DNA of 64,000 bases, taken from assembly GCA_016795485.1 (NCBI GenBank), contig JAEUHM010000041.1, forward strand, positions 248,001 to 312,000. The letters run 5' to 3'. Under the pieces are notes generated by a model, which had not been told where the DNA came from, searched no databases, and saw only the letters and a program-made list of their open reading frames with translations. Of the stretch, positions 1 to 25,413 are shown piece after piece (position 1 is the first letter of the stretch; each line of letters opens with the position of its first letter). The position numbers and the translations under genes are program-made. The DNA is from Verrucomicrobiaceae bacterium (GTDB lineage Bacteria; Verrucomicrobiota; Verrucomicrobiia; Verrucomicrobiales; Verrucomicrobiaceae).

Positions 1-3000
1 ACCTGCCACGGAAGCAGCGGAGCAGAGGCTGGCTTGAACCTTCAGACTAGCAGCTACACCAACACCGTGAATGTCTCTTCCGGAAAGTATAGCTCCCACC
101 GTGTGCGGCCAAACTTTGCCAATAGCAGCAAAAGTGCGATCTACCATGTTATCGTAGCCCAGGGAAATGGACCAAACCACAAGGGAGGAAGTTGGGTAGC
201 CACCGCAGGGCAAAAAACTAGCTTAACGAACTGGATCAATCAAGGAGCGCTCCAGAACGAGAATCCGCCCACGGTAACATCAGTCGCAGCAAGTACGGGC
301 GGAAGTGCGGGGGGCACGAATGTAACCATTACTGGAACGAGGTTCGGTGGCACAGGCGCTTACGCACCAGTGGTAACTTTTGGAGGGGTGGCTGCGACAA
401 ACGTTGTCGTAACTGAGGGCAGATTTGATCGCATCACTTGCACCACACCCCCACACGCCGAAGGTACCGTGGACGTGATCGTCACCACGACAACCGGAGG
501 TGCGTCTGCACCTCTGGTTGGGGGCTTCAGCTACACAGCGGGTCCACCCAGCAAACTAGCTTTCCTGGGGCAACCGTCAAACGGCGTAGCAGGTGCGGTG
601 TTGCCATCTAGCGTCCAAGTGCAGATCCAGGACGCCGCCAACAATCCCACTTCCAGCACTGCTAACATCACACTCGCCCTGTCAACAAATCCCGGTGCCA
701 GTACTCTGTCAGGAACCCTCACGGTCACCGCCGTTGCGGGGGTTGCAACCTTCTCGAATCTCAGCCTAGATCGTGCGGGCACTGGGTATCGGCTTTTGGC
801 GACTTCAGGAGGACTCACTAGCATCACCAGCAACGTCTTTGACATCACTGCCACACAACCGGTAGTAGCACTTGCTCAGACGTCGTCCCTAACGGCCACA
901 AGTGCATCTTTCAACTCATCTGTTGAGAGCGATGGTGGTGGCACGGTCACCACAAGGGGATTTGTGTATTCACTCAGCACCCTGAATCCAAGTCCGACTA
1001 TTGGGGCAGGCGGAGTCATTCAGATGGCATCTGGTTCTGGACTAGGCGCATATACGGCTTCGGTCAGCGGCCTGAAACCCGGCGCGTCGTATGCGATTTC
1101 TGCATATGCAACAAACCTCGCCGGAACAGCATACTCCACTCCATCTGTATTCTTCACATTGTCGAATGACACAAATCTGTCTTCCTTGTCACTGAGCGCA
1201 GGCACACTTACACCTGCTTTCGGCAGTGCGATCACCAACTACTCAGTGACAGTGCCATACAGTTCTAGCTCCATCGCATTTTCTGTTACCACGTCTTCAA
1301 CGTATGCATCCGTAACGGTGAATGGTTCATCCCCAGCCGTCCCCGTTGGGCTGCTGGTCGGGAACAATGACATTACTATGCGGGTCACTGCACAAGATGG
1401 CAGCACTCAAGACTACGTTGTTGCGATTACCCGAACAGCCCCAAGCCAAAACTCATTCTTGGCAAATCTTGCCGTCGAGCGTGGCACCCTGAGCCCACAG
1501 TTCGACCAGAATACCCCTAACTACACCCTAACCGTTCCGTATGCACAGAGCACTTTGCTGGTGAGTCCGTTTGCCGAGGACGCATTCGCAACTACCACCG
1601 TGAACGGAGGCATCCCATCGGTTCCGGTCACTCTGTCGCAAGGACCAAATATCATCTTGGTAACAGTGACCGCCGAAGATCTCAGTTCCAGAACTTACAC
1701 AGTCAATGTAACACGCTCTCCAGAGAGTAGTAGTTCATCCCTACAGAGTTTAGCCACCAGTTCGGGCACACTTGATCCGGTATTCCACTTTGCAGAAACG
1801 TCTTACCTGCTGCCCGTGACCTTGGAGACAGAATCCATCGCCTTCACACCTGTTTTGAGTGCATCTGGCGCTTCTCTGTTCATCAACGAAATTGCAGCCA
1901 CAAGCGGAGTGCCCAGCACATCAATCGGTCTTGTGCCGGGAGATACGCACATTACCATCAGAGTCACATCTCAGGACACCACCTCAACCACGAGCTATGA
2001 AGTAGTGGTGAGGCGCATGGCCAGTTCCGATGCAGATCTCTCCAATCTCCTAACCAACATCGGCAATCTTGAGCCTACCTTTCAGGCTAGTGTCACCCAG
2101 TACGATCTGTCGGTGTCAGAGACGACAAGTGCCGTGACATTTAGCCCCACGGCGGCCAACGCATTTGCATCGTTAAAAATAAATGATGTTAGCCTACAAT
2201 CTGGAGGAACAAGCCTACCTATTGCGATCGTTCCAGGCCCAAATGAGGTAAAAATCGTGGTGACTGCTCAGGACGCGACAACAAAAACATATACGGTAAA
2301 CGTAAATCGCACTTTTGGAGGACCTCCACGAATCATTTCTCAGCCTGCATCCCGGATCGCGGCAACTGGAATGATGGTTGGTTTCCAAGTTGGCGCGATT
2401 GGGGCTGGAACAATAACGTATGAATGGCGGAAGAACGGTGTTAAGCGCCAAGGGGCCACTAGCTCAAGTTTGGTAATCAATAACACAACCGCTACTGATG
2501 CGGGCACCTATACAGTGATTGTCTCAAACAGTTTTGGGAGCATTATCAGTGACGCTGCTACGCTAGCGATTTCAAAGCCGGGGACGTCGGGAGCACCGGA
2601 GATTGTCAATCAGCCTCAGTCCATTTTGGCTCCAGTTGGAAGCGCGGTTGCTTTTGGGGCTTCAGCGATTGGAACCCCAACGCCATCGTTAGCCTGGCGA
2701 AAGAAGGGACTGACTTCTGTCCTGTCGACCACCGGCACCTTGGCCATGAATCCAATATCGCTTGGCTCGTCTGGAGTCTACTACATGCAAGCGAAGAACA
2801 CCGGAGGAGCGATTTCGACCGTAGGTGCCCGCCTCGGAGTCGTAGACACTACAGCCACGGTCAAGCAGGCCAAAGTCGGCACTGTAGTCTCACTGACCGT
2901 GAGTGCCGCAGGTGAGGCACTCTTGCATCAGTGGAAAAAAGACGGTGCAGAGATGACTGGAGCCACGAGTTCCAAGTTGCTTATCAAAACAGCAAGTCTT

Positions 3001-4521
3001 TTGGACACAGGGCACTACTCATGTTTGATCAGAATGGGTGACAAAACTCTCGAGAGCGGAGTGATCGACCTACAGGTATACGACAAAGCTCCCATAATAA
3101 TGCTTCCGGTCGATTCGATGCTTCCGCCAGCGATTGTTAGTGGCACATATAGCTTTGTGGTTCCGGCAGATACTTCTTCCGAGCGTGCCGTGGTCGCCTG
3201 GTCAGCAAAGGGCTTGCCCAAAGGCGTGTCGATTCATCCGACATCAGGGATAATCAGCGGTAAACCACTTCTGGCCTCTCCTTCAGGCAGCTTTTTCAGC
3301 GTGAAGATCACCGCAACAAATGGATCAGGGAGTCACACAGTGCCAGTCAGACTGGTGGTTTCCCCTCTGACACCTGGAGCGGCTGGAACTTACAATGGTT
3401 TGGTAGATCGAGATAGCTCGTTGAACCAAAGCTACGGAGGCAGCCTTTCATTGACGGTCGCTTCAGACGGAATGATGACGGGTAAGCTCGGAATGGGTAA
3501 AGTGACTTTGCCATTTACCAAGGTGTGGCTGGACACATTTATTTCGAGCACTCCGACCGGTACGATCGAGTTGGGTGCATACTCTGTCCATTTCGCCATC
3601 AATCCGTCAACCGGAGAGCTTACGGGTAACGTTCGAAGTGCTACTACAGCTCCGATTGGTCTCAGCGGCTGGCGACACACAGCACCACCTGCGATCACTT
3701 TTGGCAGATACAATGCGGTGATCGACCTCACACCTAGCCAACTTCCAAACCCGATTGGTGATCCAGACTATCCACAAGGATCAGGCTTCGGCACGCTCAC
3801 AGTTTCAGCTGCGGGAATTTCCTGGAACGGCCGACTGGCAGATGGTGTTGCCTATACAATCTCTACTACGATTGGTAGCACTTCGAAGATTCCGTTCCAC
3901 TTGATGCTTTATGGAAACACAGGCTCCATCCACGGATGGTTGACACTTTCCGCTCCAGATTTGGATGGCTCTATCGACTGGGGCAAATCTCAACAGGCGC
4001 CAACGTCAACCAGTCACAATTACATAACGGGATTCAGCCTTCACAAACTAACCGTAATGGGTAGTAGATATATTCCGCCCGTAAGCCCTATCCTGGGTTT
4101 GTCTGATGGGGGTCCTGGCACAACTAACGCAAAGCTCACATTCTCCGAAGCAGGAATCAGCACGTCAGCTCAATACGCGCCACTGAATGGCACTACCTTT
4201 CGCGTAACCACAACGAACTCACTCGTTCTGCCAACTGGGGCAGCGAATCCAACGGGCCTTAACGTTAAACTGGACGCGGCAACAGGTGGATTCTTCGGAA
4301 GTTTTGACCTGAAAAATGATCCTGACCCAACCGACACCGTAGCACCCATCAGATTGTTGACACGTAATGCTAAGTTTTACGGGCTCGTCGTGACTCGCAC
4401 TGGAATCGAGCGTGGAGTTGGTCACTTCTTGCTTTCCGAACTCCCACAAATTGGTCCACCAACTACAACTCTGCTCACATCTGACATCCTTTCTGGGCGA
4501 GTGAATCTCGGTCCAAAGTGA
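1..4521 (+). CDS. Giant secreted multi-beta-sandwich protein with N-terminal heme c motif (5' truncated)
   Basis: The frame is open from base 1, so the start lies left of the window. The first visible residues read T-C-H-G-S-S-G-A-E, the tail of a CxxCH heme c site, and about 75 cytochrome-c-like residues follow. Next come an IPT/TIG-like domain (about 259-545), an invasin Big_1-like domain (545-850), an FN3-like domain (853-1167), four cadherin-like beta-sandwich repeats (1168-2315), three Ig-like domains (2320-3080), a He_PIG putative-Ig domain (3080-3360), and a C-terminal beta-rich module of a type common in large verrucomicrobial surface proteins (3370-4521). It probably acts outside the cytoplasm, since heme c is attached in the periplasm. 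The adhesive or carbohydrate-contacting role is inferred from the domains only. It converges on the sulfatase gene. Domain limits are by eye; the secretion signal is not visible. Confidence 0.85.
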   Translation, partial: TCHGSSGAEAGLNLQTSSYTNTVNVSSGKYSSHRVRPNFANSSKSAIYHVIVAQGNGPNHKGGSWVATAGQKTSLTNWINQGALQNENPPTVTSVAASTGGSAGGTNVTITGTRFGGTGAYAPVVTFGGVAATNVVVTEGRFDRITCTTPPHAEGTVDVIVTTTTGGASAPLVGGFSYTAGPPSKLAFLGQPSNGVAGAVLPSSVQVQIQDAANNPTSSTANITLALSTNPGASTLSGTLTVTAVAGVATFSNLSLDRAGTGYRLLATSGGLTSITSNVFDITATQPVVALAQTSSLTATSASFNSSVESDGGGTVTTRGFVYSLSTLNPSPTIGAGGVIQMASGSGLGAYTASVSGLKPGASYAISAYATNLAGTAYSTPSVFFTLSNDTNLSSLSLSAGTLTPAFGSAITNYSVTVPYSSSSIAFSVTTSSTYASVTVNGSSPAVPVGLLVGNNDITMRVTAQDGSTQDYVVAITRTAPSQNSFLANLAVERGTLSPQFDQNTPNYTLTVPYAQSTLLVSPFAEDAFATTTVNGGIPSVPVTLSQGPNIILVTVTAEDLSSRTYTVNVTRSPESSSSSLQSLATSSGTLDPVFHFAETSYLLPVTLETESIAFTPVLSASGASLFINEIAATSGVPSTSIGLVPGDTHITIRVTSQDTTSTTSYEVVVRRMASSDADLSNLLTNIGNLEPTFQASVTQYDLSVSETTSAVTFSPTAANAFASLKINDVSLQSGGTSLPIAIVPGPNEVKIVVTAQDATTKTYTVNVNRTFGGPPRIISQPASRIAATGMMVGFQVGAIGAGTITYEWRKNGVKRQGATSSSLVINNTTATDAGTYTVIVSNSFGSIISDAATLAISKPGTSGAPEIVNQPQSILAPVGSAVAFGASAIGTPTPSLAWRKKGLTSVLSTTGTLAMNPISLGSSGVYYMQAKNTGGAISTVGARLGVVDTTATVKQAKVGTVVSLTVSAAGEALLHQWKKDGAEMTGATSSKLLIKTASLLDTGHYSCLIRMGDKTLESGVIDLQVYDKAPIIMLPVDSMLPPAIVSGTYSFVVPADTSSERAVVAWSAKGLPKGVSIHPTSGIISGKPLLASPSGSFFSVKITATNGSGSHTVPVRLVVSPLTPGAAGTYNGLVDRDSSLNQSYGGSLSLTVASDGMMTGKLGMGKVTLPFTKVWLDTFISSTPTGTIELGAYSVHFAINPSTGELTGNVRSATTAPIGLSGWRHTAPPAITFGRYNAVIDLTPSQLPNPIGDPDYPQGSGFGTLTVSAAGISWNGRLADGVAYTISTTIGSTSKIPFHLMLYGNTGSIHGWLTLSAPDLDGSIDWGKSQQAPTSTSHNYITGFSLHKLTVMGSRYIPPVSPILGLSDGGPGTTNAKLTFSEAGISTSAQYAPLNGTTFRVTTTNSLVLPTGAANPTGLNVKLDAATGGFFGSFDLKNDPDPTDTVAPIRLLTRNAKFYGLVVTRTGIERGVGHFLLSELPQIGPPTTTLLTSDILSGRVNLGPK

Positions 4522-8657: not shown

Positions 8658-8833
8658 AGGAATAGAGGGTTTATGTGATGATACGCGGTCATAGGCAGGA
8701 GGAAGCTACAAAACCAGCGGGGTTTTGCACTCCGCAATCCGGGGCGCTTCCTTCGGAAAAAACTCCACTTTCCAACGCGGACTCATTCGGTAGGAATGCC
8801 GCCCCCCCTGGAAAAACCAAGACGATTTCTGAC

Positions 8834-9904
8834 ATGATCACCACCCCTGACGCCAAGTTTCTCATCCTGATCGCCAACACCGCGCTAAAGATCGACGTCG
8901 TTAGCTTTAAAGATCAAGTGCTGGACGATGCCATTCCGTCCTTGAGGTCAAAAGCTGCCCAGATTTGCGCTGATTTGAGATCATTCCGAGAGGAACTAGC
9001 CACGGCGCTCCAAGCAAAACAGGATGCGGACGAAGCTGATCGTCAGGCTGCAATAGAGGCCAAAGCGCGTGAAAAAGCGGAGCGCGAGGCCACCAAAAAA
9101 GCTGCTGAGGAGGCAAAGGCTGCCGCCAAGGCACAAAAAGAAGCCGAGAAAGCCGCAGCAAAAGCTGCCAAAGAGCAAGCAGCCCGCGAGAAAGCAGAAC
9201 AACAAGCTCGTGAGCGCTCAGAGCGCGAAGAGGCCAAGAAAGCCGCAGCCGAAGCAAAGGCCCTGGCCGCTCAGCAGAAAGCCGAAGAGCAAGCGCGGAT
9301 CGCCGCTGAACGTGAAGCTGCTCGCGTTGCAGCAGCTGAGGCTCGTGCTAAAGCCCTTGCGGAGAAGGAGGCTGCAAAGCAAGCTGCGGCAGAAGAGAAA
9401 GCCAGAATCGCGGCTGAAAAAGAGGCGGCTCGTCAGCTGAAGGAACAACAAGATGCTGAAAAAGCCGAAGCCAAGGCCCGTGAAAAGGCTGAGAAGGAAG
9501 CTGCTAAGCAGGCTGCGGCGGAAGAAAAGGCCCGGATCGCTGCTGAAAAGGAGGCAGAGAAGCAATTGAAGGCACAACAGGCCGCCGAGCGTGCCGAAGC
9601 GCGCGCCAAGGAGAAAGCAGAGAAGGAAGCTGCCAAACAGGCGGCGGCTGCGGAGCGCGCTCGCATCGCCGCAGAGAAGCAAGCAGCCAAAGAAGCTGCT
9701 GAAGCTCAACGCGCTCACGCCTTGGCAGAGCGAGACGCACTGAGACAAGCCGCTGCCCAGCTGAAGGCAAAAAAACTGGCCGAAGAAGCGGAGAAAAAGC
9801 GCCAGAAAGACGCCGCCGCTGCCGCGAATCTAGCTGCCATGGAAGCCGCTGCCGCCCGCTCGACTGCACCAGAAGAAATCGTTTACATTGACCAGGACGA
9901 GTAA
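8834..9904 (+). CDS. Ala/Lys/Glu-rich long-helix repeat protein
   Basis: About 356 residues from the ATG at 8834. The same frame is open back to 8675, but that extension has no family-like or signal features and unlike composition, so the inner start is preferred with moderate confidence. Residues 1-55 form an ordinary globular or helical head (TPDAKFLILIANTALKIDVVSF...). From about 60 to 345 the chain is almost wholly A, K, E, R and Q and should form an uninterrupted charged helix (coiled coil or single alpha-helix). Within it a 43-residue block beginning EKEAAKQAAAEEKARIAAEK repeats in tandem. The tail STAPEEIVYIDQDE is acidic. No signal peptide or membrane segment is visible, so a cytoplasmic role is likely. 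TolA-like or histone-H1-like matches would be compositional. Function unknown. Confidence 0.75.
   Translation: MITTPDAKFLILIANTALKIDVVSFKDQVLDDAIPSLRSKAAQICADLRSFREELATALQAKQDADEADRQAAIEAKAREKAEREATKKAAEEAKAAAKAQKEAEKAAAKAAKEQAAREKAEQQARERSEREEAKKAAAEAKALAAQQKAEEQARIAAEREAARVAAAEARAKALAEKEAAKQAAAEEKARIAAEKEAARQLKEQQDAEKAEAKAREKAEKEAAKQAAAEEKARIAAEKEAEKQLKAQQAAERAEARAKEKAEKEAAKQAAAAERARIAAEKQAAKEAAEAQRAHALAERDALRQAAAQLKAKKLAEEAEKKRQKDAAAAANLAAMEAAAARSTAPEEIVYIDQDE
9362..9748 (+). repeat. 129-bp in-frame tandem repeat, about 2.7 copies
   Basis: Units begin at 9362, 9491 and 9620, exactly 129 bases (43 codons) apart. Copies 1 and 2 are closely similar in protein; copy 3 diverges in its last third. 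They lie within the charged-helix gene and preserve its frame. Confidence 0.85.
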
Positions 9905-15693: not shown

Positions 15694-16557
15694 TCACCGC
15701 GAAATAAATGCGTTGATCTCACGCCGTGTGGGGATCGAAGGCTGCGCGCCTGCTTTAAGCGTAGCGAGGGCTCCAGCAGCATTCGCGAAGGCAATGTCGT
15801 TCGAGACGGCAAACGCGCCCGCAAAGGTGTCTCCCGCACCGACGGTGTCCAACGGCGTGACTTTCGGCGGAGCAAACTCACTCACACCGGCCTCGCTGAG
15901 GCTCAGCGTGCTCTCCGCGCCGCGGGTGATAATGAGCTGACGGCACTTCGCCTGCTTCAAATCGCGATCTGGGGTGATCTTCGCCGCCTCGCCTTCGTTT
16001 ACGATGAGCACATCGACGTCGAAGCGATCGGCAAGAAATGCCTCGCTGAGGGGTGACGGGTTCAAAATGACCTTCACACCGGCTTCACGGGCGATTTCCG
16101 CTGCACGACGCACGACGGGCAGCGGGCATTCGAGCTGCAAAAGCAGCGCATCGGCGGCGCGGATGGGTTGGGCTTGTTTTTCGACGTCGGCGGGTGAGAT
16201 CGCGTGATTCGCGCCCGGATTGACGATGATCGAGTTTTCGCCCGCATCATCCACCGCGATGAAAGCGCTGCCGGTGGGTGTTTCGGAGCGTGAGATGCCG
16301 CTGGTGTCGATTCCCTCGGCTTTGAGTGCCTCAATGTAGCGCGTGCCGAAGTCATCCACGCCCACGCAGCCGATCATCGTCACGCGTCCGCCGGATCGGG
16401 CGGCGGCAACGGCCTGATTCGCTCCTTTGCCGCCAAAACACGTCAGCATGCTGCTCGACGTGAGCGTTTCGCCAGGTGCAGGAATGCGCGGCACACGCAG
16501 CGTGTGATCCACGTTCAACGATCCGACGACGACGATGCTGGGACTCTTCGTTTCCAT
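15694..16557 (-). CDS. rbsK: Ribokinase
   Basis: 287 residues of PfkB/ribokinase type: N-terminal VVGSLNVDHTLRVPRIPAPGETL, the substrate loop FGGKGANQAVAAAR, and the ATP-site D-T-V-G-A-G-D-T-F with catalytic Asp243. It phosphorylates ribose at O5 so that it can enter the pentose phosphate pathway. The ATG at 16557 shares a base with the TGA of the preceding nucleoside hydrolase (TGATG), so the pair is translationally coupled. Nucleoside hydrolase would release ribose and ribokinase would use it. A related sugar kinase specificity cannot be excluded, but the context favours ribose. Confidence 0.9.
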   Translation of the reverse strand: METKSPSIVVVGSLNVDHTLRVPRIPAPGETLTSSSMLTCFGGKGANQAVAAARSGGRVTMIGCVGVDDFGTRYIEALKAEGIDTSGISRSETPTGSAFIAVDDAGENSIIVNPGANHAISPADVEKQAQPIRAADALLLQLECPLPVVRRAAEIAREAGVKVILNPSPLSEAFLADRFDVDVLIVNEGEAAKITPDRDLKQAKCRQLIITRGAESTLSLSEAGVSEFAPPKVTPLDTVGAGDTFAGAFAVSNDIAFANAAGALATLKAGAQPSIPTRREINAFISR

Positions 16558-17528
16558 CACTTCTTCGCCTGCGGAGGTTCGACACTGAGCTGCACGATGG
16601 CTTCGCGGACGCGGGAGGCCTGCTCGGGGCTCATGATGAGGAAGCGGTGCTTGCCGGTTCCTTTTTTCACGGGGCGGAAGAGCGTGGCGGAGTCATTCTC
16701 GACAATGATGTTGCCGGGAGGCGAGAGGTCGAAGTATCCGCGATCCGGGTAGATGGCGTACAGCACTGCAGTCGGGTCCCAGGTGGGGCGATCGTGCGGC
16801 GGCGGGTTGTAGAGGTAGTAGCCCTCCTTGAGTGGATGGTTCGGTATGTAGTTGAGATCCTCCTCTATGGAAATGTGAGGAAATGCCGCCGCTACTCCAA
16901 TCTCAAAGCCGCTCCAGATCATCGGTGTAGGCCACTGGGTGGCCAGTTTCTGCGCGGCGGGCACGTCGAGCTTCACATTGTATTCGAGGTGCCGCGTGTC
17001 GAAGTTCACCGTCTGAAATGCGCCTGCCATGAGGCAGAGAAACTTTACTTTCTTTGTGATCAAGGCATTGGCAGAAGCGTCATCCGTCAAGCGCGCGAGA
17101 TTGGTGAAGAAACCCACCTGGACGATGACCACACTTGCGTCTGGCTGCTTGGCAAGGACGTCCTTGATCAACGCGCAAGCCTCAGGCGCGTCCGTGCCAC
17201 TCTTGAGGTCGTGCGGATGCTTGTCAGCGAGCAAATTGAACTTCCCCGGCTCTTTGGCCGCGCCATTGCGCACCACTCCGATGGGTGTGTCTGGATAACC
17301 GTAGAGCGTGTTTACCGCATCGACGAAGGCAGCGGCCTGCGGATGATCTTTCGTGACGGTGACGGCAAGCAACTCACACGCGCCGCGCTTTTGCAGATTG
17401 TGGATCATGCACAGCGCCATGAGGTCATCGATGTCATTGCCCATGTCAGTATCGAAAATGAGCTTCACAGGCGCCGCTGGAAGTAAGGAGGGCACGACGA
17501 CAAAAAGAAAGACCAGTATCAGTTTCAT
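16557..17528 (-). CDS. Secreted nucleoside hydrolase-like protein, copy 1
   Basis: 323 residues from the ATG at 17528, which opens a signal peptide (MKLILVFLFVVVPSLLPAA). The calcium/ribose-binding Asp cluster is LIFDTDMGNDIDDLMAL (Asp26, Asp28, Asp34, Asp35), a variant of the DTDPGxDDA of inosine/uridine-preferring nucleoside hydrolases. Downstream MIWSGFEIG and HDRPTWDPTAVLYA supply the other pocket residues, including the late Asp of W-D-x-T. A signal peptide is unusual for the classical family but common in this subfamily. It would split nucleosides to ribose and base in the periplasm. It is paralogous to the 24430-25413 gene and coupled to rbsK. Confidence 0.88.
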   Translation of the reverse strand: MKLILVFLFVVVPSLLPAAPVKLIFDTDMGNDIDDLMALCMIHNLQKRGACELLAVTVTKDHPQAAAFVDAVNTLYGYPDTPIGVVRNGAAKEPGKFNLLADKHPHDLKSGTDAPEACALIKDVLAKQPDASVVIVQVGFFTNLARLTDDASANALITKKVKFLCLMAGAFQTVNFDTRHLEYNVKLDVPAAQKLATQWPTPMIWSGFEIGVAAAFPHISIEEDLNYIPNHPLKEGYYLYNPPPHDRPTWDPTAVLYAIYPDRGYFDLSPPGNIIVENDSATLFRPVKKGTGKHRFLIMSPEQASRVREAIVQLSVEPPQAKK

Positions 17529-17647
17529 GAAGCTGAGACCAACGAAGCACAAGCCCAAGCGCTATCGTGTGCTAGTTACCAAAAAGCTCGTACGGCAGTG
17601 GAATCACTTTGAAAAACCTCACAGTGCACGGTTCAGTTTGAAATCAC

Positions 17648-20600
17648 ATGAGTCTAATTAAGCTCGCCCACACCTTTGCATTAGCATCCTGCCTTTACGT
17701 TGCCTTCCCAAGCACCACCGGCGCACTGACAGTCACTGTTCCTGGCTCTGCCAACCCCTGGCTCGCAGGTGCAGCGAATGGAACAACGGCAAGCAGCGGG
17801 GACGAAGCTCCTGCACAGTCGCCCGTGCTGGTGCAACTGGTGGAAGTGGATGCTGGGGACCTGCTGCGGTTCTACGTCTCCGGGATGGCTGGTTATGCGC
17901 CCGGTTCAGAGACGACCTCGGATGGTGTTGGCGGATCGTCCTTTTGGGAAATGACTCACTCGATGGAGAACGGCATCGGCGGCATCAACAATGCACCGGC
18001 GAATGCATTGATCGGCGTCTTCTTGGATGACTCCACGCCTGCGGCAGGTTCAGAACCCACCTCACTGGACTTTTCAGTATCATCGGGCATTCGCGATGCA
18101 GGCAGCCAAAGTCCGGGGTTGAAGCAGCCCTTCTTCATCGGCAACGGCGTTGGTGCTGGCAGCGTGCGTCAGACTTTTGCGGTTCCAACTGGAGCCACGC
18201 GATTGTATCTCGGCACGCTTGATGGCAGCGGTTGGTTCAACAACCCGGGCCAGTTCACGGTGAACATCACCATCAATGGCGAGGGCGGCACGAACACGGT
18301 GTCTTGGGGAACACCCACGTTGATCAGCCAGCCGTCCGACGTGATTACTGGCGGTTCGTTGGTACTGGCGAAGACGCTGCTTAATGCGGGGGTGCTGGCG
18401 GGCAACAACCAAGATGTGACCGTCAATGGAGTTCCATTCACGGAGGCGCGCGACATCAGCTATGGCGGTGTGGGCAATGCCTTGTTCGAACTCAGCAGCG
18501 GCTATCCCTGGGACGGTGACTTCGGCTCAGCCAGCACGCCGTTCTCGAACCTCGACAGCAGCTACCAGACACTGCTGAAAACTGGCATTCTGCGTCTCGG
18601 TGCGAATGCCTCGCTGCGCTCGTTTCAACTCACGCTGAATGGTCTCACCATTGGCGACACGTACGATGTGCAGTTCTGGGTAAACGGCTCCTATACCGGA
18701 GCTTCGACCGCAAACCATAACACGGTCATCACCACATCTTCCGGCAGCGTGACGCTCGATCCCAATACCACAGGGACCGACGGCGGCATTGGCCAATGGG
18801 TTACTGCGTCCTTCGTTGCGAACGAGCCAGGCATTACCTTTGAGTTCACCTCCGACAATGCCAGCGGCTTCGGCACGTTGAATGCCTTCCAGGTTCGCAG
18901 CAGCTCAGCCACCCCAGAGATCACCGACACCGAACTGCCCGCACCGGGCAACAGCTTCACCGTCACTGGCGGCACAGCGCCATACACTTTTGAAGTTATC
19001 AGTGGCAGTATGCCTCAGGGACTTCTTTTGAGCAGTGATGGAATGATTTCGGGCTCTCCGACGGCGAGCAGTTCAGGAGCAGTCATGATCCGTGTTACAG
19101 ACAGCGCTAGTGCAGTTGGCGGCAAGATCTTCAACTACACTTTCGATATTGGCAGACCTGAAATCGCATTGAGACGCGTGGTCATTCAGGATGTGGGTGG
19201 AACGAATCGCATGGGCATCTTTGAAGTCACTGCGAATGATGATGTAGCGCTGGCCCCTTACGAATCAGATACGCTGATCACCAACGCCAGCCATGCGTTT
19301 GAATACCGATTCAAGTCTGGTGCAGGGACCTTCTTCACATGGGAAACCGCCCTCTATTTCCCGTTCAACTATCCACCGGCGATTCCGTTCGACACCGTGG
19401 AAGATCTTCGCGTCGAGTTTCGCAGCATCGATGCAGCGGGAAACCGTTCACGCACGCTGGCCTATGACATCAAAAAGGGAGCACTGCCAACTGCTGACCA
19501 GAGCTTCGGCGTCAGCGTGGCTGCCGCCACCACTACATTGATTCCCAATGCAGGCGCTTCGATCATCAAGATGTTTGTTGAAGAGTCGGGCTCCGGCTCT
19601 TCCAGTGTGAAGGTCACGACGGTGGATCGGGACACCGGCAAAATCTCAGCTGTTTACAACAGCAACCGCAGCAACCCCGCCAACAGTCCCAAGAACAGCA
19701 TCACGCTCGGAACGGCCGTCATCGATGCCGCAGCAGGCCGCCTGATGCCGCCAACAACTGGAAAAAACGATGGCATCATGGACTTCGTTGTGGCCACGGC
19801 AAGCGGATTGAAGATCGTCGTTAACAAATCAGGTGCCGCACCATCCCTTGCCGAACACAGCGTCTCACTGCCAGTCGATGGCGCAGTGAAAAAGGTAGCC
19901 GTTGGAGATGTGAACGGTGATGGTGCAGATGACATTGTCGCGATCGTGTTAAAGACGACAGGTCCTCAACTCGGCCACTTCCTAGCGGTTTATCTCAGTC
20001 AGGCCACCGCCAACTCCACAAATGGAGCCTTCACCACATCCGGCTTCTCCTCACCGACTTATGACATGATCCCTTTGGTGCTCGATGCGCGCGCCCTGAC
20101 GGCAGGCGACCTCAATGGCGATGGGGCGGCTGATGTTGTTTTTGCCTACAGGGATGTTGTGTCGTCCACGGAGAAGGTGCTCGTTTACAAAGGGACTCCG
20201 GGCGGCGCTCTGGTCTCGCCCGCTGCTCCCTTGTTCGTTACCAATCCGGATAACGACGAAGAAATCGTGGATCTCAAGATCGCCGATTACTCAGGCCATG
20301 TAGCAGGCCAGAAGGACATTATCGTAGGCATCATTGGTGACCCCGACACCCTTTACCCGTCGGTCACTCATGTGGTCAAACACCGTGTGCTAGTTGGGCA
20401 GATTGGCGGAGCGTTCAAGATGGCCCCGACACGTCGTCTGGCGACGATTTCGCAGACGCTAACCGACAAGAATGTCTTCAACATCGCGGTCGGTCACCTG
20501 AGTGACAGGGTGATGCCGGACATTGTCAGTTGTCAGTTTGATGGCGTTAGTCCAGCTGGAGCTATTGACAGTGGTTTTCTGCCTCCGGCAAACGCCACTG

Positions 20601-23600
20601 GTGAACTCAACTGGATGCTCGGCAACGACAATGGAGTGCAAACCTTTGGCACGATCTCTGGCAAGCCACGTCGAATCGAACTCGCAGACCTGACCGGCAA
20701 TGCGCTGCCCGACGTGATCCTGGCCAACTCAGACAATGGAAACATTGAACTGCTGGCCAATCAGAAGCCGCTTCTCGTGGCACTTCCGCCCAAAGTTCTC
20801 GCCGCTCCCGCACTGACGGTTCCAGTGCTGACGGCTCTCACGCCGGGTGGAGCCTCACCCTTTGCCACACGCGGCATTGCAGGCCGGCCATGGACGTTCA
20901 GCTACGCGATTGGCAAGCCACCTGCGGACATAATAGCAAGAGTGGAGTATCAGTTGAACTATGGGCCATGGACAACACTTCCCGGCGGCACTCTTGGACG
21001 GTCAGGCACCAACTTCACTGCCACGGTGCCATCAGTCCCTGTCGGGCTCCTCCGTTTCCGCTGCTGGGCCACCTCTGCCAGTCAAAGTGCTGCGGGCGTG
21101 TATGATTCGTATTCCCTGCCCTCACAAGCTGTCCGCAGCATCGGGGCACCCCATCTCGCCGCTTCGATAGAGAGTTTTCCGGACAGCGATCCACAGTTCA
21201 ACAAGTTCACGCATGATGACGAGTTCATCACCTTCTACATCAACTACCGCAATGATGGGGTGACTGATGCTCAGAACGTGGTCGTGGCAGCGGCCATTCC
21301 CCTGCAAACCGTCTTCACTGATCGGCCCAGCGGCACCAGTCACAGCCCTGGTTTTCTTTTGGACAATACCGACCCAGCCAAGGCCACCGTTGTCTCCTGG
21401 AACATCGGCACCCTAGCTCCCGGGACTAACACCAACCGCTTCTTCTCGGTGAAGGTCAAACCCACGGCCATGGCCGCACTCAAAGGCAAGCCAATCGTCA
21501 TCAATCAGGTCGCGGACGCCACAAAAAGCAATCCTCCCACGACGGCTGACCTCTTTAAGAAACACCTGTCCTCAACCAAGTCCTTCGGAGTCTACAGCAG
21601 CGCGCCCGGAGCCAGCTTCAAACCCATACTTGCGAGCGCGGGCAACGCCCAAGTGTATGTGCTCCCACCACTTACCGTGAAGCAAACACTGAGTGGAGAT
21701 CGGGTGGGCCCTGGACAATTGGTGACAGTATCCATGGAGGTGAAAAACTATGGCCCCACGACCATCAACAACATCACGGTCTCAGACACGCTGGAGGACT
21801 TCTTCTCGCTTGAGGGAGTGCGACCGCGCGCTCCGGCAAATGCACCAAGTGGAAACTTCATTGGCACGCTAGACCCTAACCCAGACGCTAGCACCAACCC
21901 GAAGTATGAAATAGGTGCATCAGGGCGCGTCTTGACTTGGAACATTGGCTCGCTGGCACCAGGAGATGCCTGCACCATGGAGTATCAGTTGCGCCTCCGC
22001 TACGATGTGGACTCGGAGTCCATTCGGAACGGTGTACTAGCCGAGAACGATGTGGAGTTCTCCAGTTTCAATGCCGTGGGGGTTACTTCCACCAACAAGC
22101 CGATCACTGCTCAAACCAAGCTCTACCCGAAGTTGCTCGCTGGCGTGGACGCCGTGGCGAGTTCCGCGCGGCCACAACTAAGCTTCCAGATGGACTGCGT
22201 GCCGCTTTCTGGCACCGACCCCAACACAGCCTCCGAGCCCAGCTACAGACAAACTATCCGCGTGGGCAACGAAGACATGGCCGTGCTTGCCGAGGGCGGC
22301 ATCTTTCGCACCAAGCTCAACTACCGTAACACCAGCCCCACCCCCGCCAGACACTGTTCCATCAGCTATGAAGTGCCAGATAACGCGGAGATGCTTGGCT
22401 TCTTCCGCCGCAACAGCATCGCTGACTCACTAGCGTCAAACTACACCTTCTTCGGCCCATCTGGCATCATCCCTGTAGCCAATCTCGGCACCGAGATGAA
22501 GAAGGTCCGCCGGATGATCATCCGCCTCGGCGATGTAGCTGGGAACTCAAGCGGCAGCGTGGATTTCATCCTCGCCGCTTACTCACCTCCCATCCCAAAG
22601 GCTACCAACGAGAAGCCCACACCCGCCAAGAGCTTCATCGCTAGCAAGACGATGTTTATCGAGTCAGACAGCCTAAAGAACCCCGCACAAGGCACACCAT
22701 GGCAGGTGCCCGTTTACATCATGCGTCCCGTCTCGTTCGAGATCGAGACCCGACCTGACAAACCCAACCTCATCGCCAACGGAGCCGATCAGGACGTGAC
22801 ATTTACCATCACCTTCCGCAACACCGGCTCAAACACCGCGCAAGGCACCAAAATGCGCGCCACCGTCCCTGTGGGCACCACACTCGTCAGCAGTGACTTC
22901 GACGGCAGCCCAGGTACCGTCTTGAGCAATGGCCAAGTCGAGTTCGACATCGGCACCATGACAGGAGCTGCTCTAGCCTCAGCGGCTCCCGAAGAAACAG
23001 CGCAGATGGTCGTGCGCATCCCCGCAGTCCGCCCAGCCAACTTCCCCAAAGATGGCCGTCTCCGTCAGCGCGTGGAGATCATCGGACGGGACTCCGTGAC
23101 GAACAAGAGCTCGATCGGCACCTACCGCCTCTTCTCCGCGATCGCAGCAGACAAGACCACTGTTCAAACCGCTGCGAGTGAGGGCCTAGTCAACGTCACC
23201 GTGCCTCTGCTGAATCTCAGTTACGCCCGTCTCGTCACCAGTAAGCATTTGCCCACCATCGTGCGGCCCGGTCAAGTTTATCCCATCAAGCTAACGGCCG
23301 GAAACACTGGCAGCGCGGCTCTGACAAACGTCACAGTGGCCATGCAGATACCCTTCGGCACAGACTTGGTCACAGCCGGGACTACCCCGTGGTCCAAGAA
23401 GGAAGCCAACAATATCTACCGCTGGAACCTGGGCAATCTGAATGCCCACAGCGCTCAAATCGTGGTCATCATGCTCCGAGTGCGCAACGTGCCAGCGCAT
23501 GAAGGCAAGTTCATCAGTGAAAACTCTGCTGTAGCCGAAGGCACGTTTAACGGAGTGAAGCAAACCAATGCCCCCGGCCGTGCCGTACAGCTTGTGCTTT

Positions 23601-24385
23601 CCACCAATCCCTTTGCCTCAGCGTGGCAGTGGTGGGGAGCCTCCCAATCCGCGATAGGAAGCACCGTCTCAGGCTCAGTCGTCATTCTTGACACCGCTGT
23701 GAGCAATCTATCCTCCGAGACCACTCTTCACTGCGTCAATGGTGCAGATTGCATCGTGCTGCCCAACGGAGCGCTCATCATGCAACTCGGGGGTGGCAAC
23801 ATCGTCGCTGCCGGAGGCGGAAACATCGTGGCGGCTGGCGGCGGCAATATCGTGGCCGCAGGTGGAGGTAATATCGTGGCCGCGGGAGCCGGAAACGCCA
23901 TCAACGTGGCGACCGTCGGCGCGCTCAGCACCGCCAATCTACAATCCGTGGCAGCGGGCATCGTATCAGGTGGCGCGGGCAACATCATAGCCGCAGGCGC
24001 GGGCAACCTATTGGCCAACGATGGCGGTGGACTCCTCGCCAACGACGGCGGCAGCTTCACTCCCGGCTCTCTCGCTCAGGCTGGGGTCGTGGCAGGAGGT
24101 GCGGGCAACTTTACCGTCACTGGCAGTGGCATCGTTGCGGCTGGAGCAGGCAACTTCACCGGCAACTCCCTCAAAAGCAGCCGCAATGGCGCCGTGATGG
24201 TGCCCACAAGCGCCGGATTCATCCGAGTTAGCAGTCTCTTAGCTAATGACGGCGGTGGCCTGTTAGGAAACGATGGCGGCGGACTCATCGCCAATGATGG
24301 CGCTGGCCTGTTAGGAAACGATGGCGGCGGACTTGTGATCCGTGTCAATGGTGCTGAAATCGTAGCCGGAGGCGCGGGGAACTGA
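17648..24385 (+). CDS. Giant secreted protein: lectin-like, VCBS/FG-GAP, DUF11 and octapeptide repeats
   Basis: 2245 residues with a signal peptide ending near ...STTGALT. Order by nucleotide: a PA-IL/PPC-like beta-sandwich (17726-18290), a second carbohydrate-binding-like jelly roll (18300-18910), a He_PIG domain (18910-19150), a VCBS/FG-GAP propeller (about 19600-20780) with calcium-loop motifs such as GDVNGDGADD and GDLNGDGAADV, then four DUF11-type domains (about 21150-21480, 21650-21990, 22700-23010, 23200-23500). The C-terminal 200 residues are Gly/Asn repeats. It is surely extracellular, and I infer a surface adhesin or matrix protein. No LPxTG, PEP-CTERM or T9SS tail is visible; the chain ends ...EIVAGGAGN. 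It lies inside a nucleoside/ribose gene set, which suggests later insertion. Confidence 0.9.
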   Translation: MSLIKLAHTFALASCLYVAFPSTTGALTVTVPGSANPWLAGAANGTTASSGDEAPAQSPVLVQLVEVDAGDLLRFYVSGMAGYAPGSETTSDGVGGSSFWEMTHSMENGIGGINNAPANALIGVFLDDSTPAAGSEPTSLDFSVSSGIRDAGSQSPGLKQPFFIGNGVGAGSVRQTFAVPTGATRLYLGTLDGSGWFNNPGQFTVNITINGEGGTNTVSWGTPTLISQPSDVITGGSLVLAKTLLNAGVLAGNNQDVTVNGVPFTEARDISYGGVGNALFELSSGYPWDGDFGSASTPFSNLDSSYQTLLKTGILRLGANASLRSFQLTLNGLTIGDTYDVQFWVNGSYTGASTANHNTVITTSSGSVTLDPNTTGTDGGIGQWVTASFVANEPGITFEFTSDNASGFGTLNAFQVRSSSATPEITDTELPAPGNSFTVTGGTAPYTFEVISGSMPQGLLLSSDGMISGSPTASSSGAVMIRVTDSASAVGGKIFNYTFDIGRPEIALRRVVIQDVGGTNRMGIFEVTANDDVALAPYESDTLITNASHAFEYRFKSGAGTFFTWETALYFPFNYPPAIPFDTVEDLRVEFRSIDAAGNRSRTLAYDIKKGALPTADQSFGVSVAAATTTLIPNAGASIIKMFVEESGSGSSSVKVTTVDRDTGKISAVYNSNRSNPANSPKNSITLGTAVIDAAAGRLMPPTTGKNDGIMDFVVATASGLKIVVNKSGAAPSLAEHSVSLPVDGAVKKVAVGDVNGDGADDIVAIVLKTTGPQLGHFLAVYLSQATANSTNGAFTTSGFSSPTYDMIPLVLDARALTAGDLNGDGAADVVFAYRDVVSSTEKVLVYKGTPGGALVSPAAPLFVTNPDNDEEIVDLKIADYSGHVAGQKDIIVGIIGDPDTLYPSVTHVVKHRVLVGQIGGAFKMAPTRRLATISQTLTDKNVFNIAVGHLSDRVMPDIVSCQFDGVSPAGAIDSGFLPPANATGELNWMLGNDNGVQTFGTISGKPRRIELADLTGNALPDVILANSDNGNIELLANQKPLLVALPPKVLAAPALTVPVLTALTPGGASPFATRGIAGRPWTFSYAIGKPPADIIARVEYQLNYGPWTTLPGGTLGRSGTNFTATVPSVPVGLLRFRCWATSASQSAAGVYDSYSLPSQAVRSIGAPHLAASIESFPDSDPQFNKFTHDDEFITFYINYRNDGVTDAQNVVVAAAIPLQTVFTDRPSGTSHSPGFLLDNTDPAKATVVSWNIGTLAPGTNTNRFFSVKVKPTAMAALKGKPIVINQVADATKSNPPTTADLFKKHLSSTKSFGVYSSAPGASFKPILASAGNAQVYVLPPLTVKQTLSGDRVGPGQLVTVSMEVKNYGPTTINNITVSDTLEDFFSLEGVRPRAPANAPSGNFIGTLDPNPDASTNPKYEIGASGRVLTWNIGSLAPGDACTMEYQLRLRYDVDSESIRNGVLAENDVEFSSFNAVGVTSTNKPITAQTKLYPKLLAGVDAVASSARPQLSFQMDCVPLSGTDPNTASEPSYRQTIRVGNEDMAVLAEGGIFRTKLNYRNTSPTPARHCSISYEVPDNAEMLGFFRRNSIADSLASNYTFFGPSGIIPVANLGTEMKKVRRMIIRLGDVAGNSSGSVDFILAAYSPPIPKATNEKPTPAKSFIASKTMFIESDSLKNPAQGTPWQVPVYIMRPVSFEIETRPDKPNLIANGADQDVTFTITFRNTGSNTAQGTKMRATVPVGTTLVSSDFDGSPGTVLSNGQVEFDIGTMTGAALASAAPEETAQMVVRIPAVRPANFPKDGRLRQRVEIIGRDSVTNKSSIGTYRLFSAIAADKTTVQTAASEGLVNVTVPLLNLSYARLVTSKHLPTIVRPGQVYPIKLTAGNTGSAALTNVTVAMQIPFGTDLVTAGTTPWSKKEANNIYRWNLGNLNAHSAQIVVIMLRVRNVPAHEGKFISENSAVAEGTFNGVKQTNAPGRAVQLVLSTNPFASAWQWWGASQSAIGSTVSGSVVILDTAVSNLSSETTLHCVNGADCIVLPNGALIMQLGGGNIVAAGGGNIVAAGGGNIVAAGGGNIVAAGAGNAINVATVGALSTANLQSVAAGIVSGGAGNIIAAGAGNLLANDGGGLLANDGGSFTPGSLAQAGVVAGGAGNFTVTGSGIVAAGAGNFTGNSLKSSRNGAVMVPTSAGFIRVSSLLANDGGGLLGNDGGGLIANDGAGLLGNDGGGLVIRVNGAEIVAGGAGN
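23789..24331 (+). repeat. In-frame 24-bp octapeptide repeats (GGGNIVAA and LLxNDGGG)
   Basis: Four GGGNIVAA units run consecutively at 23789-23884 with identical residues but different wobble bases. Two LLANDGGG-type units lie at 24008-24055 and four at 24236-24331. The units at 24260-24283 and 24308-24331 are identical in nucleotide sequence. Single GAGN-containing relatives fill the spaces between the blocks. Confidence 0.9.
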
Positions 24386-24429: not shown

Positions 24430-25413
24430 TCAGCGCCTCGGCGGTTGGATGGTGAGATGGACGATGGCCTCCAGCGCACGGCTTTGCTGGACAGAGTTCA
24501 TCGTGAGGAAACGATCACGCCGGCTGGTTTGGCCTTTGCCTTGCGGCAAGAAACGTGTGAAGCCATCATCAAGCACTTTCACGCGTCCAGGCTGCGACAG
24601 GCCGAAGAACTCGCGCTCGGAATACACGGCCCACAGCACGCTGCTCTCGTCCCAGCAGGGGCGGTCGTGCTCGGGGCCGCTGTGGAGCAGATAGGCTTCT
24701 TTGACGATGTGATGCGGGAGGTAGTCGAGATCGCGCTGGATGACGATGCGCGGAAACGGCAGCGCCTCGCCAATCTCATAGCCGCTCCACACGATGGGCA
24801 CCTCTTCGGGCCACTGGTCGGCCACGGTCTGCATGTAGCCGATGCCGTTGATGACGTTTGCTTCGAGGTGGTAGTTTGTGCGGTTACAGAACGCGAACGC
24901 ACCCGCCATAATCGACAGCGCTTTGACCTTCTTCTTCACCAAATCGACTCCGCCGGGCGATTTGAGGAGATTGGCCATGTTCGACGCGATGCCCACGCTG
25001 ATGATCGTGATACTGTGATCAGGTTGTGCGGCTAAAAGCTCGCGGATGAGTTCCACGGCATCTTTGGCGTCCTCGTTGCGCTTCAAATCATGCGGGTAGT
25101 CGGGAGAATCGGCCAGCTTGAGGTATTTGCTCTCGCGCTGCTGAGCCTCCTTATCCCGCGTGACCCCCACCGGAAGGTCCGGGCGACCGTGAAAGGTGTT
25201 CTGCGCATCGACAAAGCTCGCGGTGAGTTGGTTGTTTTTTGAAACCGTCACGCCGAGCAACTCGCAAGCCTCACGATCCGCCAGCGTGTGGCACATGGCT
25301 AGCGCCAGCACGTCATCGACATCGCCAGTGATGTCGGTGTCGAAAATGATCTTTGGTTTCTCAGCAATAAGCGGAGAAGTGAGAGAAAAGAGAAAGAGGA
25401 TGAGGCGTTTCAT
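24430..25413 (-). CDS. Secreted nucleoside hydrolase-like protein, copy 2
   Basis: 327 residues with a signal peptide (MKRLILFLFSLTSPLIA). The Asp cluster is IIFDTDITGDVDDVLAL (Asp25, Asp27, Asp31, Asp33, Asp34), and VWSGYEIGEALPFPR and HDRPCWDESSVLWAV match the corresponding parts of the 16557-17528 protein, so the two are paralogues. It would hydrolyse nucleosides in the periplasm. It follows the RbsC-like permease gene by 3 bases on the same strand, which places it in the ribose/nucleoside operon. Base specificity cannot be told. Confidence 0.88.
   Translation of the reverse strand: MKRLILFLFSLTSPLIAEKPKIIFDTDITGDVDDVLALAMCHTLADREACELLGVTVSKNNQLTASFVDAQNTFHGRPDLPVGVTRDKEAQQRESKYLKLADSPDYPHDLKRNEDAKDAVELIRELLAAQPDHSITIISVGIASNMANLLKSPGGVDLVKKKVKALSIMAGAFAFCNRTNYHLEANVINGIGYMQTVADQWPEEVPIVWSGYEIGEALPFPRIVIQRDLDYLPHHIVKEAYLLHSGPEHDRPCWDESSVLWAVYSEREFFGLSQPGRVKVLDDGFTRFLPQGKGQTSRRDRFLTMNSVQQSRALEAIVHLTIQPPRR

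What the first reader, a model, noticed from the sequence alone, without database searches (positions are those of the whole stretch)
23789..24385. Two interleaved families of 8-residue Gly/Asn repeats at the C terminus of a giant secreted protein
GGGNIVAA (four in a row) and LLxNDGGG (two plus four) share a 24-base period. The GGGNIVAA units differ only at silent positions, so the protein sequence is kept by selection. The 24260-24283 and 24308-24331 units are identical in DNA, a sign of recent duplication. An 8-residue period with N-D-G-G-G turns suggests a narrow beta-solenoid, analogous to but distinct from RTX nonapeptides. It may be a secretion or folding signal.
Basis: partly seen in the sequence, partly recalled or inferred. 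Interest (0 to 1): 0.6.

Follow-up and report, generated by a model that had tools for sequence, protein, structure and literature searches.

The report
Octapeptide-repeat tail on giant secreted proteins
The end of this giant exported protein is built from one family of 8-residue building blocks that comes in two flavours and recurs at the ends of unrelated exported proteins in several bacterial phyla, probably as a stackable beta-sheet rod rather than a secretion signal; neither the fold nor the function has been shown experimentally.

Summary
In detail: the C-terminal ~200 residues of the 2245-aa ORF 17648-24385(+) have a strong 8-residue period, with 34 silent and 0 replacement differences among the four GGGNIVAA units. 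The "two families" are one octapeptide in two discrete unit types: A (IVAAGGGN) and B (LIGNDGAS). Among 514 units from 57 loci, 393 are type A, 109 type B, and only about 9 hybrid at the two coupled positions. The window's genome has at least four such proteins. Relatives occur in Verrucomicrobiota, Planctomycetota, Acidobacteriota, Bacteroidota, Alphaproteobacteria, Actinobacteriota and one Cyanobacteria MAG, on unrelated N-terminal parts (DUF11/FG-GAP, Ricin lectin, DUF4214, RTX, lipoproteins). 46 of 54 arrays end within 60 aa of the stop, and 21 stop exactly on the Asn of a type A unit. No Pfam, NCBIfam or PDB sequence match was found. AlphaFold gave low confidence for the window tail; for an 11-unit paralogous array it gave strands every 8 residues (pLDDT 65, pTM 0.54; the other four models were poorer). 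Most likely this is an extracytoplasmic beta-solenoid or assembly module. A dedicated secretion signal or calcium-binding RTX domain is not supported. Function is inferred, not shown.

The parts
17648..24385 (+). Giant exported protein gene, 2245 aa: Sec-type signal sequence, He_PIG, FG-GAP_3, four DUF11 stretches, C-terminal octapeptide tail
17648..17725 (+). N-terminal Sec-type signal sequence MSLIKLAHTFALASCLYVAFPSTTGA (end approximate)
   Evidence: read by eye
21218..22975 (+). DUF11 repeats, surface-protein Ig-like modules, three of them located
   Evidence: contig coordinates minus 248000
23723..23812 (+). Pre-tail beta-hairpins leading in phase into the first unit; a similar GAD-x-LQL-x-NG-x-IPL segment is present in other Verrucomicrobiota members
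   Evidence: (pLDDT about 65-81 by 10-residue block)
23789..23896 (+). Type A array: GGGNIVAA x4 plus GAGN
23966..24013 (+). Type A units SGGAGNII AAGAGNLL
24014..24061 (+). Type B units ANDGGGLL ANDGGSFT
24092..24160 (+). Two spaced type A units AGGAGNFT and AAGAGNFT
24236..24331 (+). Type B array LLANDGGG LLGNDGGG LIANDGAG LLGNDGGG; the 2nd and 4th units are identical in DNA
24359..24382 (+). Last unit IVAGGAGN: the protein stops exactly on the Asn of a type A unit, as in 21 of 54 proteins

Best explanation
The tail is a module of octapeptide repeats on a Sec-exported surface or matrix protein. Each octapeptide is a short beta-strand (I/L-V-A) followed by a tight turn. The turn carries exactly one Asn/Asp-type side chain: at position 8 in type A (G-G-G-N) or at position 5 in type B (D-G-A-S). 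Successive units stack into a narrow beta-solenoid, probably two octapeptides per coil. A and B units occupy equivalent positions and can replace each other. Because many arrays stop on a bare type A unit with no cap, the open edge probably lets tails join to each other or to other tails, tying large DUF11 proteins or small lectins into an extracellular layer or matrix. Shown: the period, purifying selection, the two coupled unit types, A-to-B replacement at fixed unit number in relatives, terminal position and exact end. Weakly supported: the beta-solenoid (prediction). Inferred: Sec export (signal sequences read by eye), two units per coil, self-association, matrix function.
For: Lag-8 period z 8.5, and 34 silent against 0 replacement differences. 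514 units in 57 loci split into A (393) and B (109) with about 9 hybrids. Relatives of the own-genome C40 protein and a G009 protein keep seven units between the same landmarks, with three A units replaced by B units, while only 80 of 234 identical residues keep the codon. The order A-A-A-B ... A-B is kept in three related tails. AF2 on the C47 array from the same genome: ten strands at a spacing of about 8, pLDDT 64.6, pTM 0.54; its loose structural neighbours are beta-solenoids and beta-rolls. 46 of 54 arrays lie within 60 aa of the stop (8.6 expected if uniform), and 21 of the 26 arrays followed by fewer than 8 residues stop exactly on the unit. N-terminal parts are extracellular types such as DUF11/FG-GAP, Ricin lectin, DUF4214 and NHL. 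For ice-nucleation protein, a cap is described as essential and uncapped solenoids as tending to unravel or form fibrils (PMC9418140).
Against: AF2 gave no fold for the window's own tail (pLDDT 52), and four of five models of the paralogous array were at 41-48. Foldseek has no significant match. No excess similarity at lag 2 units supports a 16-residue coil; similarity simply decays with distance, as tandem duplication predicts. Some arrays are followed by 38-40 residues that could be a cap, or are internal. The coupling of positions 5 and 8 could partly reflect copying of whole units rather than structure. The exact-end statistic treats proteins as independent, although some are related.
Confidence: 0.5

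Rival explanations
1. A trimeric, intertwined triple-stranded beta-helix made of octapeptides, as in the T4 gp5/VgrG needle (VxGxxxxx): three chains wind together and the tail is a trimerisation stalk.
For: Same 8-residue period; type B units (L-V-G-N-D-G-A-S) fit VxGxxxxx; a monomer prediction would be poor, as seen; one of 26 arrays gives a weak PF22178 Gp5_trimer_C match, E 0.2.
Against: Type A units, the majority, have V-x-x-G and not V-x-G; the Pfam match is at chance level; the gp5 pattern is recalled from memory, not tested here.
Confidence: 0.15
2. A flexible, largely disordered Gly-rich spacer kept by composition and spread by replication slippage.
For: Gly-rich; AF2 low confidence; adjacent units are most alike; identical 24-mers.
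Against: Hydrophobic I/V/L pairs every 8 residues; two discrete unit types with few hybrids; unit number and type order kept at deep codon divergence; exact terminal phase.
Confidence: 0.15
3. A C-terminal sorting or secretion signal read by one secretion system.
For: Mostly C-terminal; 21 proteins end exactly ...G-x-G-N or GGLN.
Against: Occurs in phyla with very different envelopes, including monoderms; arrays internal in several proteins, and near the lipobox in lipoproteins; Sec signal sequences present; no secretion genes beside the window gene.
Confidence: 0.1
4. An ice-binding or water-ordering surface, like ice nucleation protein or the ryegrass ice-binding protein.
For: 8-residue half-coils resemble AGYGSTQT/AGEESSLT (PMC9418140); loose structural neighbours include ice-binding proteins.
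Against: No T-x-T motif in type A units (N-I-V instead); PF00818 does not match; the fold resemblance is weak.
Confidence: 0.07

Closest known systems
Bacterial ice nucleation protein repeats (PF00818)
   Same: Long arrays whose 16-residue coil is two octapeptides (AGYGSTQT AGEESSLT); modelled as a flat beta-solenoid (PMC9418140)
   Different: No PF00818 match; no TxT/SLT/Y motifs in type A; often no C-terminal cap; carried by unrelated N-terminal domains
RTX nonapeptide beta-roll (PF00353)
   Same: Gly/Asp-rich turn plus short strand, tandem, C-terminal, extracellular
   Different: Period 8 not 9, no GGxGxDxUx, no acidic ligand in type A, Sec-type signal sequence; where RTX repeats do occur (L089) they are a separate stretch of the same protein
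Ryegrass (Lolium perenne) ice-binding protein beta-roll (3ult)
   Same: Short Asn- and Val-containing repeats in a flat beta-roll (repeat recalled); top row by Z (7.7) among the Foldseek candidates
   Different: rmsd 7.8 over 80 residues, so a shared arrangement at most; plant protein with shorter repeats (recalled)
T4 gp5 / VgrG triple-stranded beta-helix (PF22178)
   Same: Octapeptide period, Val/Gly positions in type B
   Different: Type A does not fit VxGxxxxx; trimerisation untested
Curli CsgA-type repeats (PF07012)
   Same: Asn/Gly-containing repeats in an uncapped, secreted, assembling protein
   Different: Curli repeats are longer, about 19-23 residues (recalled); no Pfam match here

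Membership tests
RTX (HemolysinCabind) | Nonapeptide GGxGxDxUx | tested here: not met
   Period is 8; PF00353 absent from the window protein, from seven tails and from 26 arrays
RTX (HemolysinCabind) | Type I secretion without an N-terminal signal peptide | tested here: not met
   Sec-type signal sequence read by eye in the window protein and in small members
RTX (HemolysinCabind) | Calcium-dependent folding | not testable with these tools
   Needs purified protein; type A units have no acidic residue
Ice nucleation protein (PF00818) | Profile match | tested here: not met
   No match among 26 arrays at E up to 10; own-genome matches below the cut-off and not at the tails
Ice nucleation protein (PF00818) | 16-residue coil as two octapeptides | tested here: inconclusive
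   8-residue period met; no preference for lag 2 units; predicted strands every 8 residues
Ice nucleation protein (PF00818) | Outward TxT water-organising motif | tested here: not met
   Type A consensus is N-I-V at those positions
Beta-solenoid fold | Regular stacked strands, one or more per repeat | tested here: inconclusive
   Ten strands at a spacing of about 8, but pLDDT 65 and only one of five models; no significant PDB match
T4 gp5/VgrG octapeptide beta-helix (PF22178) | VxGxxxxx repeats in a homotrimer | tested here: inconclusive
   One of 26 arrays, E 0.2; oligomeric state not testable here
Curli (PF07012) | Curlin repeat profile | tested here: not met
   Not among Pfam matches of the tails

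The most novel reading that the evidence does not exclude
An undescribed, transferable extracellular assembly module found in at least six bacterial phyla: octapeptide solenoids written in a two-letter code (A and B units) that end in an open edge and polymerise or cross-join unrelated surface proteins, with one genome carrying many lipoproteins built on it.
Probability: 0.3. Interest if true: 0.75.

Novelty: new variant of a known kind. Interest (0 to 1): 0.55.

Why it matters
No Pfam, NCBIfam or PDB sequence match covers these tails, and searches of a large open-access paper library for motif strings found no paper describing them. Yet they end proteins with unrelated front halves in several phyla, and one genome has over a hundred matches. 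A two-type repeat grammar with a fixed end point makes a clean test case for how uncapped beta-solenoids assemble outside cells, and gives annotators a handle on giant proteins that now read only as 'DUF11 domain-containing'.

Tried and rejected
AF2 on the window tail with whole-tail alignment A1 folded only the pre-tail hairpins. A lag analysis for a 2-unit or 3-unit coil found no preference beyond decay with distance. Profile hits of A2 in other Verrucomicrobiota at E 1e-4 to 1e-7 were inspected and rejected: they look like non-coding-frame readings, a compositional array or an unrelated repeat protein. The consensus-peptide search at E 1e-6 found only the own genome among 387, so prevalence in the phylum is not established. 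My first genome contigs pattern had a 7-residue register error and found nothing; the corrected pattern gave 49 stretches, and because it demands type A units, type B-only arrays are under-sampled. Shared neighbours were few: no gene family is common to most loci. PDB searches: nothing below E 0.1. NCBIfam: no tail match. A weak RtxA_C match (PF21735, E 0.017 in one of 26 arrays) was taken as chance. Low-complexity slippage alone was considered and kept only as a rival, because unit number and type order are kept between diverged relatives.

Full report
Observation. The tail is real and at the stated place. ORF 17648-24385(+) encodes 2245 aa. The last ~200 residues repeat every 8 residues: lag-8 identity 69 against 27.6 in shuffles, z 8.5. 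The four GGGNIVAA units show 34 synonymous and no non-synonymous pairwise differences, so the peptide is kept by selection. The two 24-base units at 24260 and 24308 are identical. TRF finds the same two arrays.

One family, two unit types. AAGGGNIV and ANDGGGLL share one register. I collected 514 units from 57 loci. 393 are type A (G at position 5, N at position 8). 109 are type B (D/N/H at 5; G/S/T/A at 8). Seven plus two are hybrids. Positions 3 and 4 follow suit: A-A in type A, G/S-N/Q in type B. The unit pattern allowed either residue at each of these positions, so the split is not imposed by the search, although copying of whole units adds to it. Both types occur in 35 of the loci.

Distribution. 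The window's own genome has at least four such proteins, on contigs C14, C40, C47 and C50; these are giant exported proteins. DUF11 stretches are found on C14, C47, C50 and on a C7 giant, and the C7 giant lacks the tail. Relatives in the same family have them too. Exact contig-length matches identify some of these genomes, for example G024 as Brevifollis gellanilyticus, so the window very probably belongs to the Verrucomicrobiaceae (inference). A degenerate DNA pattern in 84,980 species genomes gave 49 stretches. Records named Prosthecobacter, Planctomycetota, Acidobacteriaceae/Bryobacteraceae, Hymenobacter, Pedobacter, Sediminibacterium, Caulobacteraceae, Asticcacaulis, Sphingomonas, Thermoleophilia and a Cyanobacteria MAG are among them. 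Several are MAGs, so single placements may be wrong; the two records labelled Bordetella parapertussis come from one MAG and are probably misnamed. No chance estimate was computed by tool for this pattern; the translated arrays show that the hits are genuine repeats.

Architecture. The N-terminal parts are unrelated: DUF11/FG-GAP in Verrucomicrobiota and Planctomycetota, Ricin-type lectin in Alphaproteobacteria and an Acidobacteriota member, DUF4214 in a Pedobacter MAG, an RTX stretch in a Thermoleophilia protein, and NHL in a Cyanobacteria MAG protein. Signal sequences are visible by eye in most complete small members. Of 54 ORFs with a known stop, 46 have the last unit within 60 aa of it, against 8.6 if uniform, and 21 stop exactly on the Asn of a type A unit; among the 26 with fewer than 8 residues after the last unit that is far from the 1/8 expected. 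Relatedness lowers the effective number, but the 21 span several architectures. Exceptions are instructive. In the Cyanobacteria MAG RYN_339 (G459), with 111 matches, lipobox-like signal sequences precede arrays that begin roughly 80-140 residues into most of a run of about ten adjacent genes. So the module is not simply a C-terminal signal.

Evolution. Between the own-genome C40 protein and a G009 protein, the same seven units lie between the same landmarks, yet three A units in one are B units in the other (IVGEHGAG), while only 80 of 234 identical residues keep their codon. In C47 and two relatives the order A-A-A-B, spacer, A-B is kept. The window protein and its G013 relative both start with a run of A units and end in GGAGN. 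Across arrays, neighbouring units are most alike, the mark of tandem duplication. So arrays change by duplication, but position and length are constrained.

Structure. AF2 folded only the pre-tail hairpins of the window tail (pLDDT 52 overall). With an in-register alignment of 26 arrays, the 11-unit array of C47 was predicted as ten short strands at a spacing of about 8 residues (pLDDT 64.6, pTM 0.54), but only in the best of five models. Foldseek gave nothing significant; VIA-align rows are mostly beta-solenoids and beta-rolls at Z below 8, which may mean only a common arrangement.

Mechanism. The most economical reading is a narrow beta-solenoid whose turn needs one Asn/Asp-type side chain, supplied at position 8 (type A) or 5 (type B). 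The nearest described architecture is the ice nucleation protein, whose 16-residue coil is two octapeptides with inward Ser ladders; there a C-terminal cap is essential, and uncapped solenoids are said to unravel or form fibrils (PMC9418140). Many tails here end on a bare unit, so I infer an open edge used for self-association in an extracellular layer. That step is inference. A gp5-like trimer, a flexible spacer, a sorting signal and an ice-active surface remain as rivals, in that order of likelihood with the first two about equal.

Membership. RTX is rejected (period, consensus, signal sequence). Ice nucleation protein membership is rejected by profile and motif, though it may work like one structurally. 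Curli is not matched. The fold itself is inconclusive.

Verdict. A real, previously unmodelled repeat module, ordinary in kind (a beta-solenoid-like surface repeat) but unusual in its two-type grammar, its exact end point and its spread.

Noticed in passing
L161 1-19501 and other contigs of G459 (Cyanobacteria MAG RYN_339): Over a hundred octapeptide-array matches in one 7.0 Mb genome, including a run of about ten adjacent genes whose products have lipobox-like signal sequences and the array roughly 80-140 residues in; a striking lineage-specific expansion, in a MAG.
   Followed up: partly
L032 9579-10196(-), L040 4368-5027(+), L041 989-1687(-), L043 9412-10086(-): A small, apparently membrane-anchored protein family lies directly after the C terminus of the tail protein in four loci, convergent in three; no Pfam match for the one tested (L041). 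Not seen next to the window gene.
   Followed up: partly
L056 2297-2989(+), L070 4053-4715(+), L091 1959-2645(-): A lipoprotein-like family sits beside the tail gene in three Bacteroidota loci.
   Followed up: no
window 16557-17558(-) and 24430-25413(-): The giant gene is flanked on both sides by paralogous IU_nuc_hydro nucleoside hydrolases (PF01156), as if inserted in a nucleoside-use cluster (PfkB kinase and sugar permease nearby).
   Followed up: partly
window 23723-23812 and the same place in L033, L042, L084: A conserved pre-tail segment (GAD-x-LQL-x-NG ... RVLAVGP ... RVAVGPG) precedes the repeats in Verrucomicrobiota members; no Pfam match.
   Followed up: partly
window 9362-9648: A 129-bp tandem repeat, 2.2 copies, coding for a Lys/Glu/Ala-rich stretch in ORF 8675-9904(+).
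   Followed up: no
window 1-4521(+): Another giant surface-type protein, with Cadherin-like, Ig, TIG and He_PIG domains, cut by the window edge.
   Followed up: no
L066, L079: Records titled Bordetella parapertussis (one MAG) carry these tails; probably a misnamed bin.
   Followed up: no
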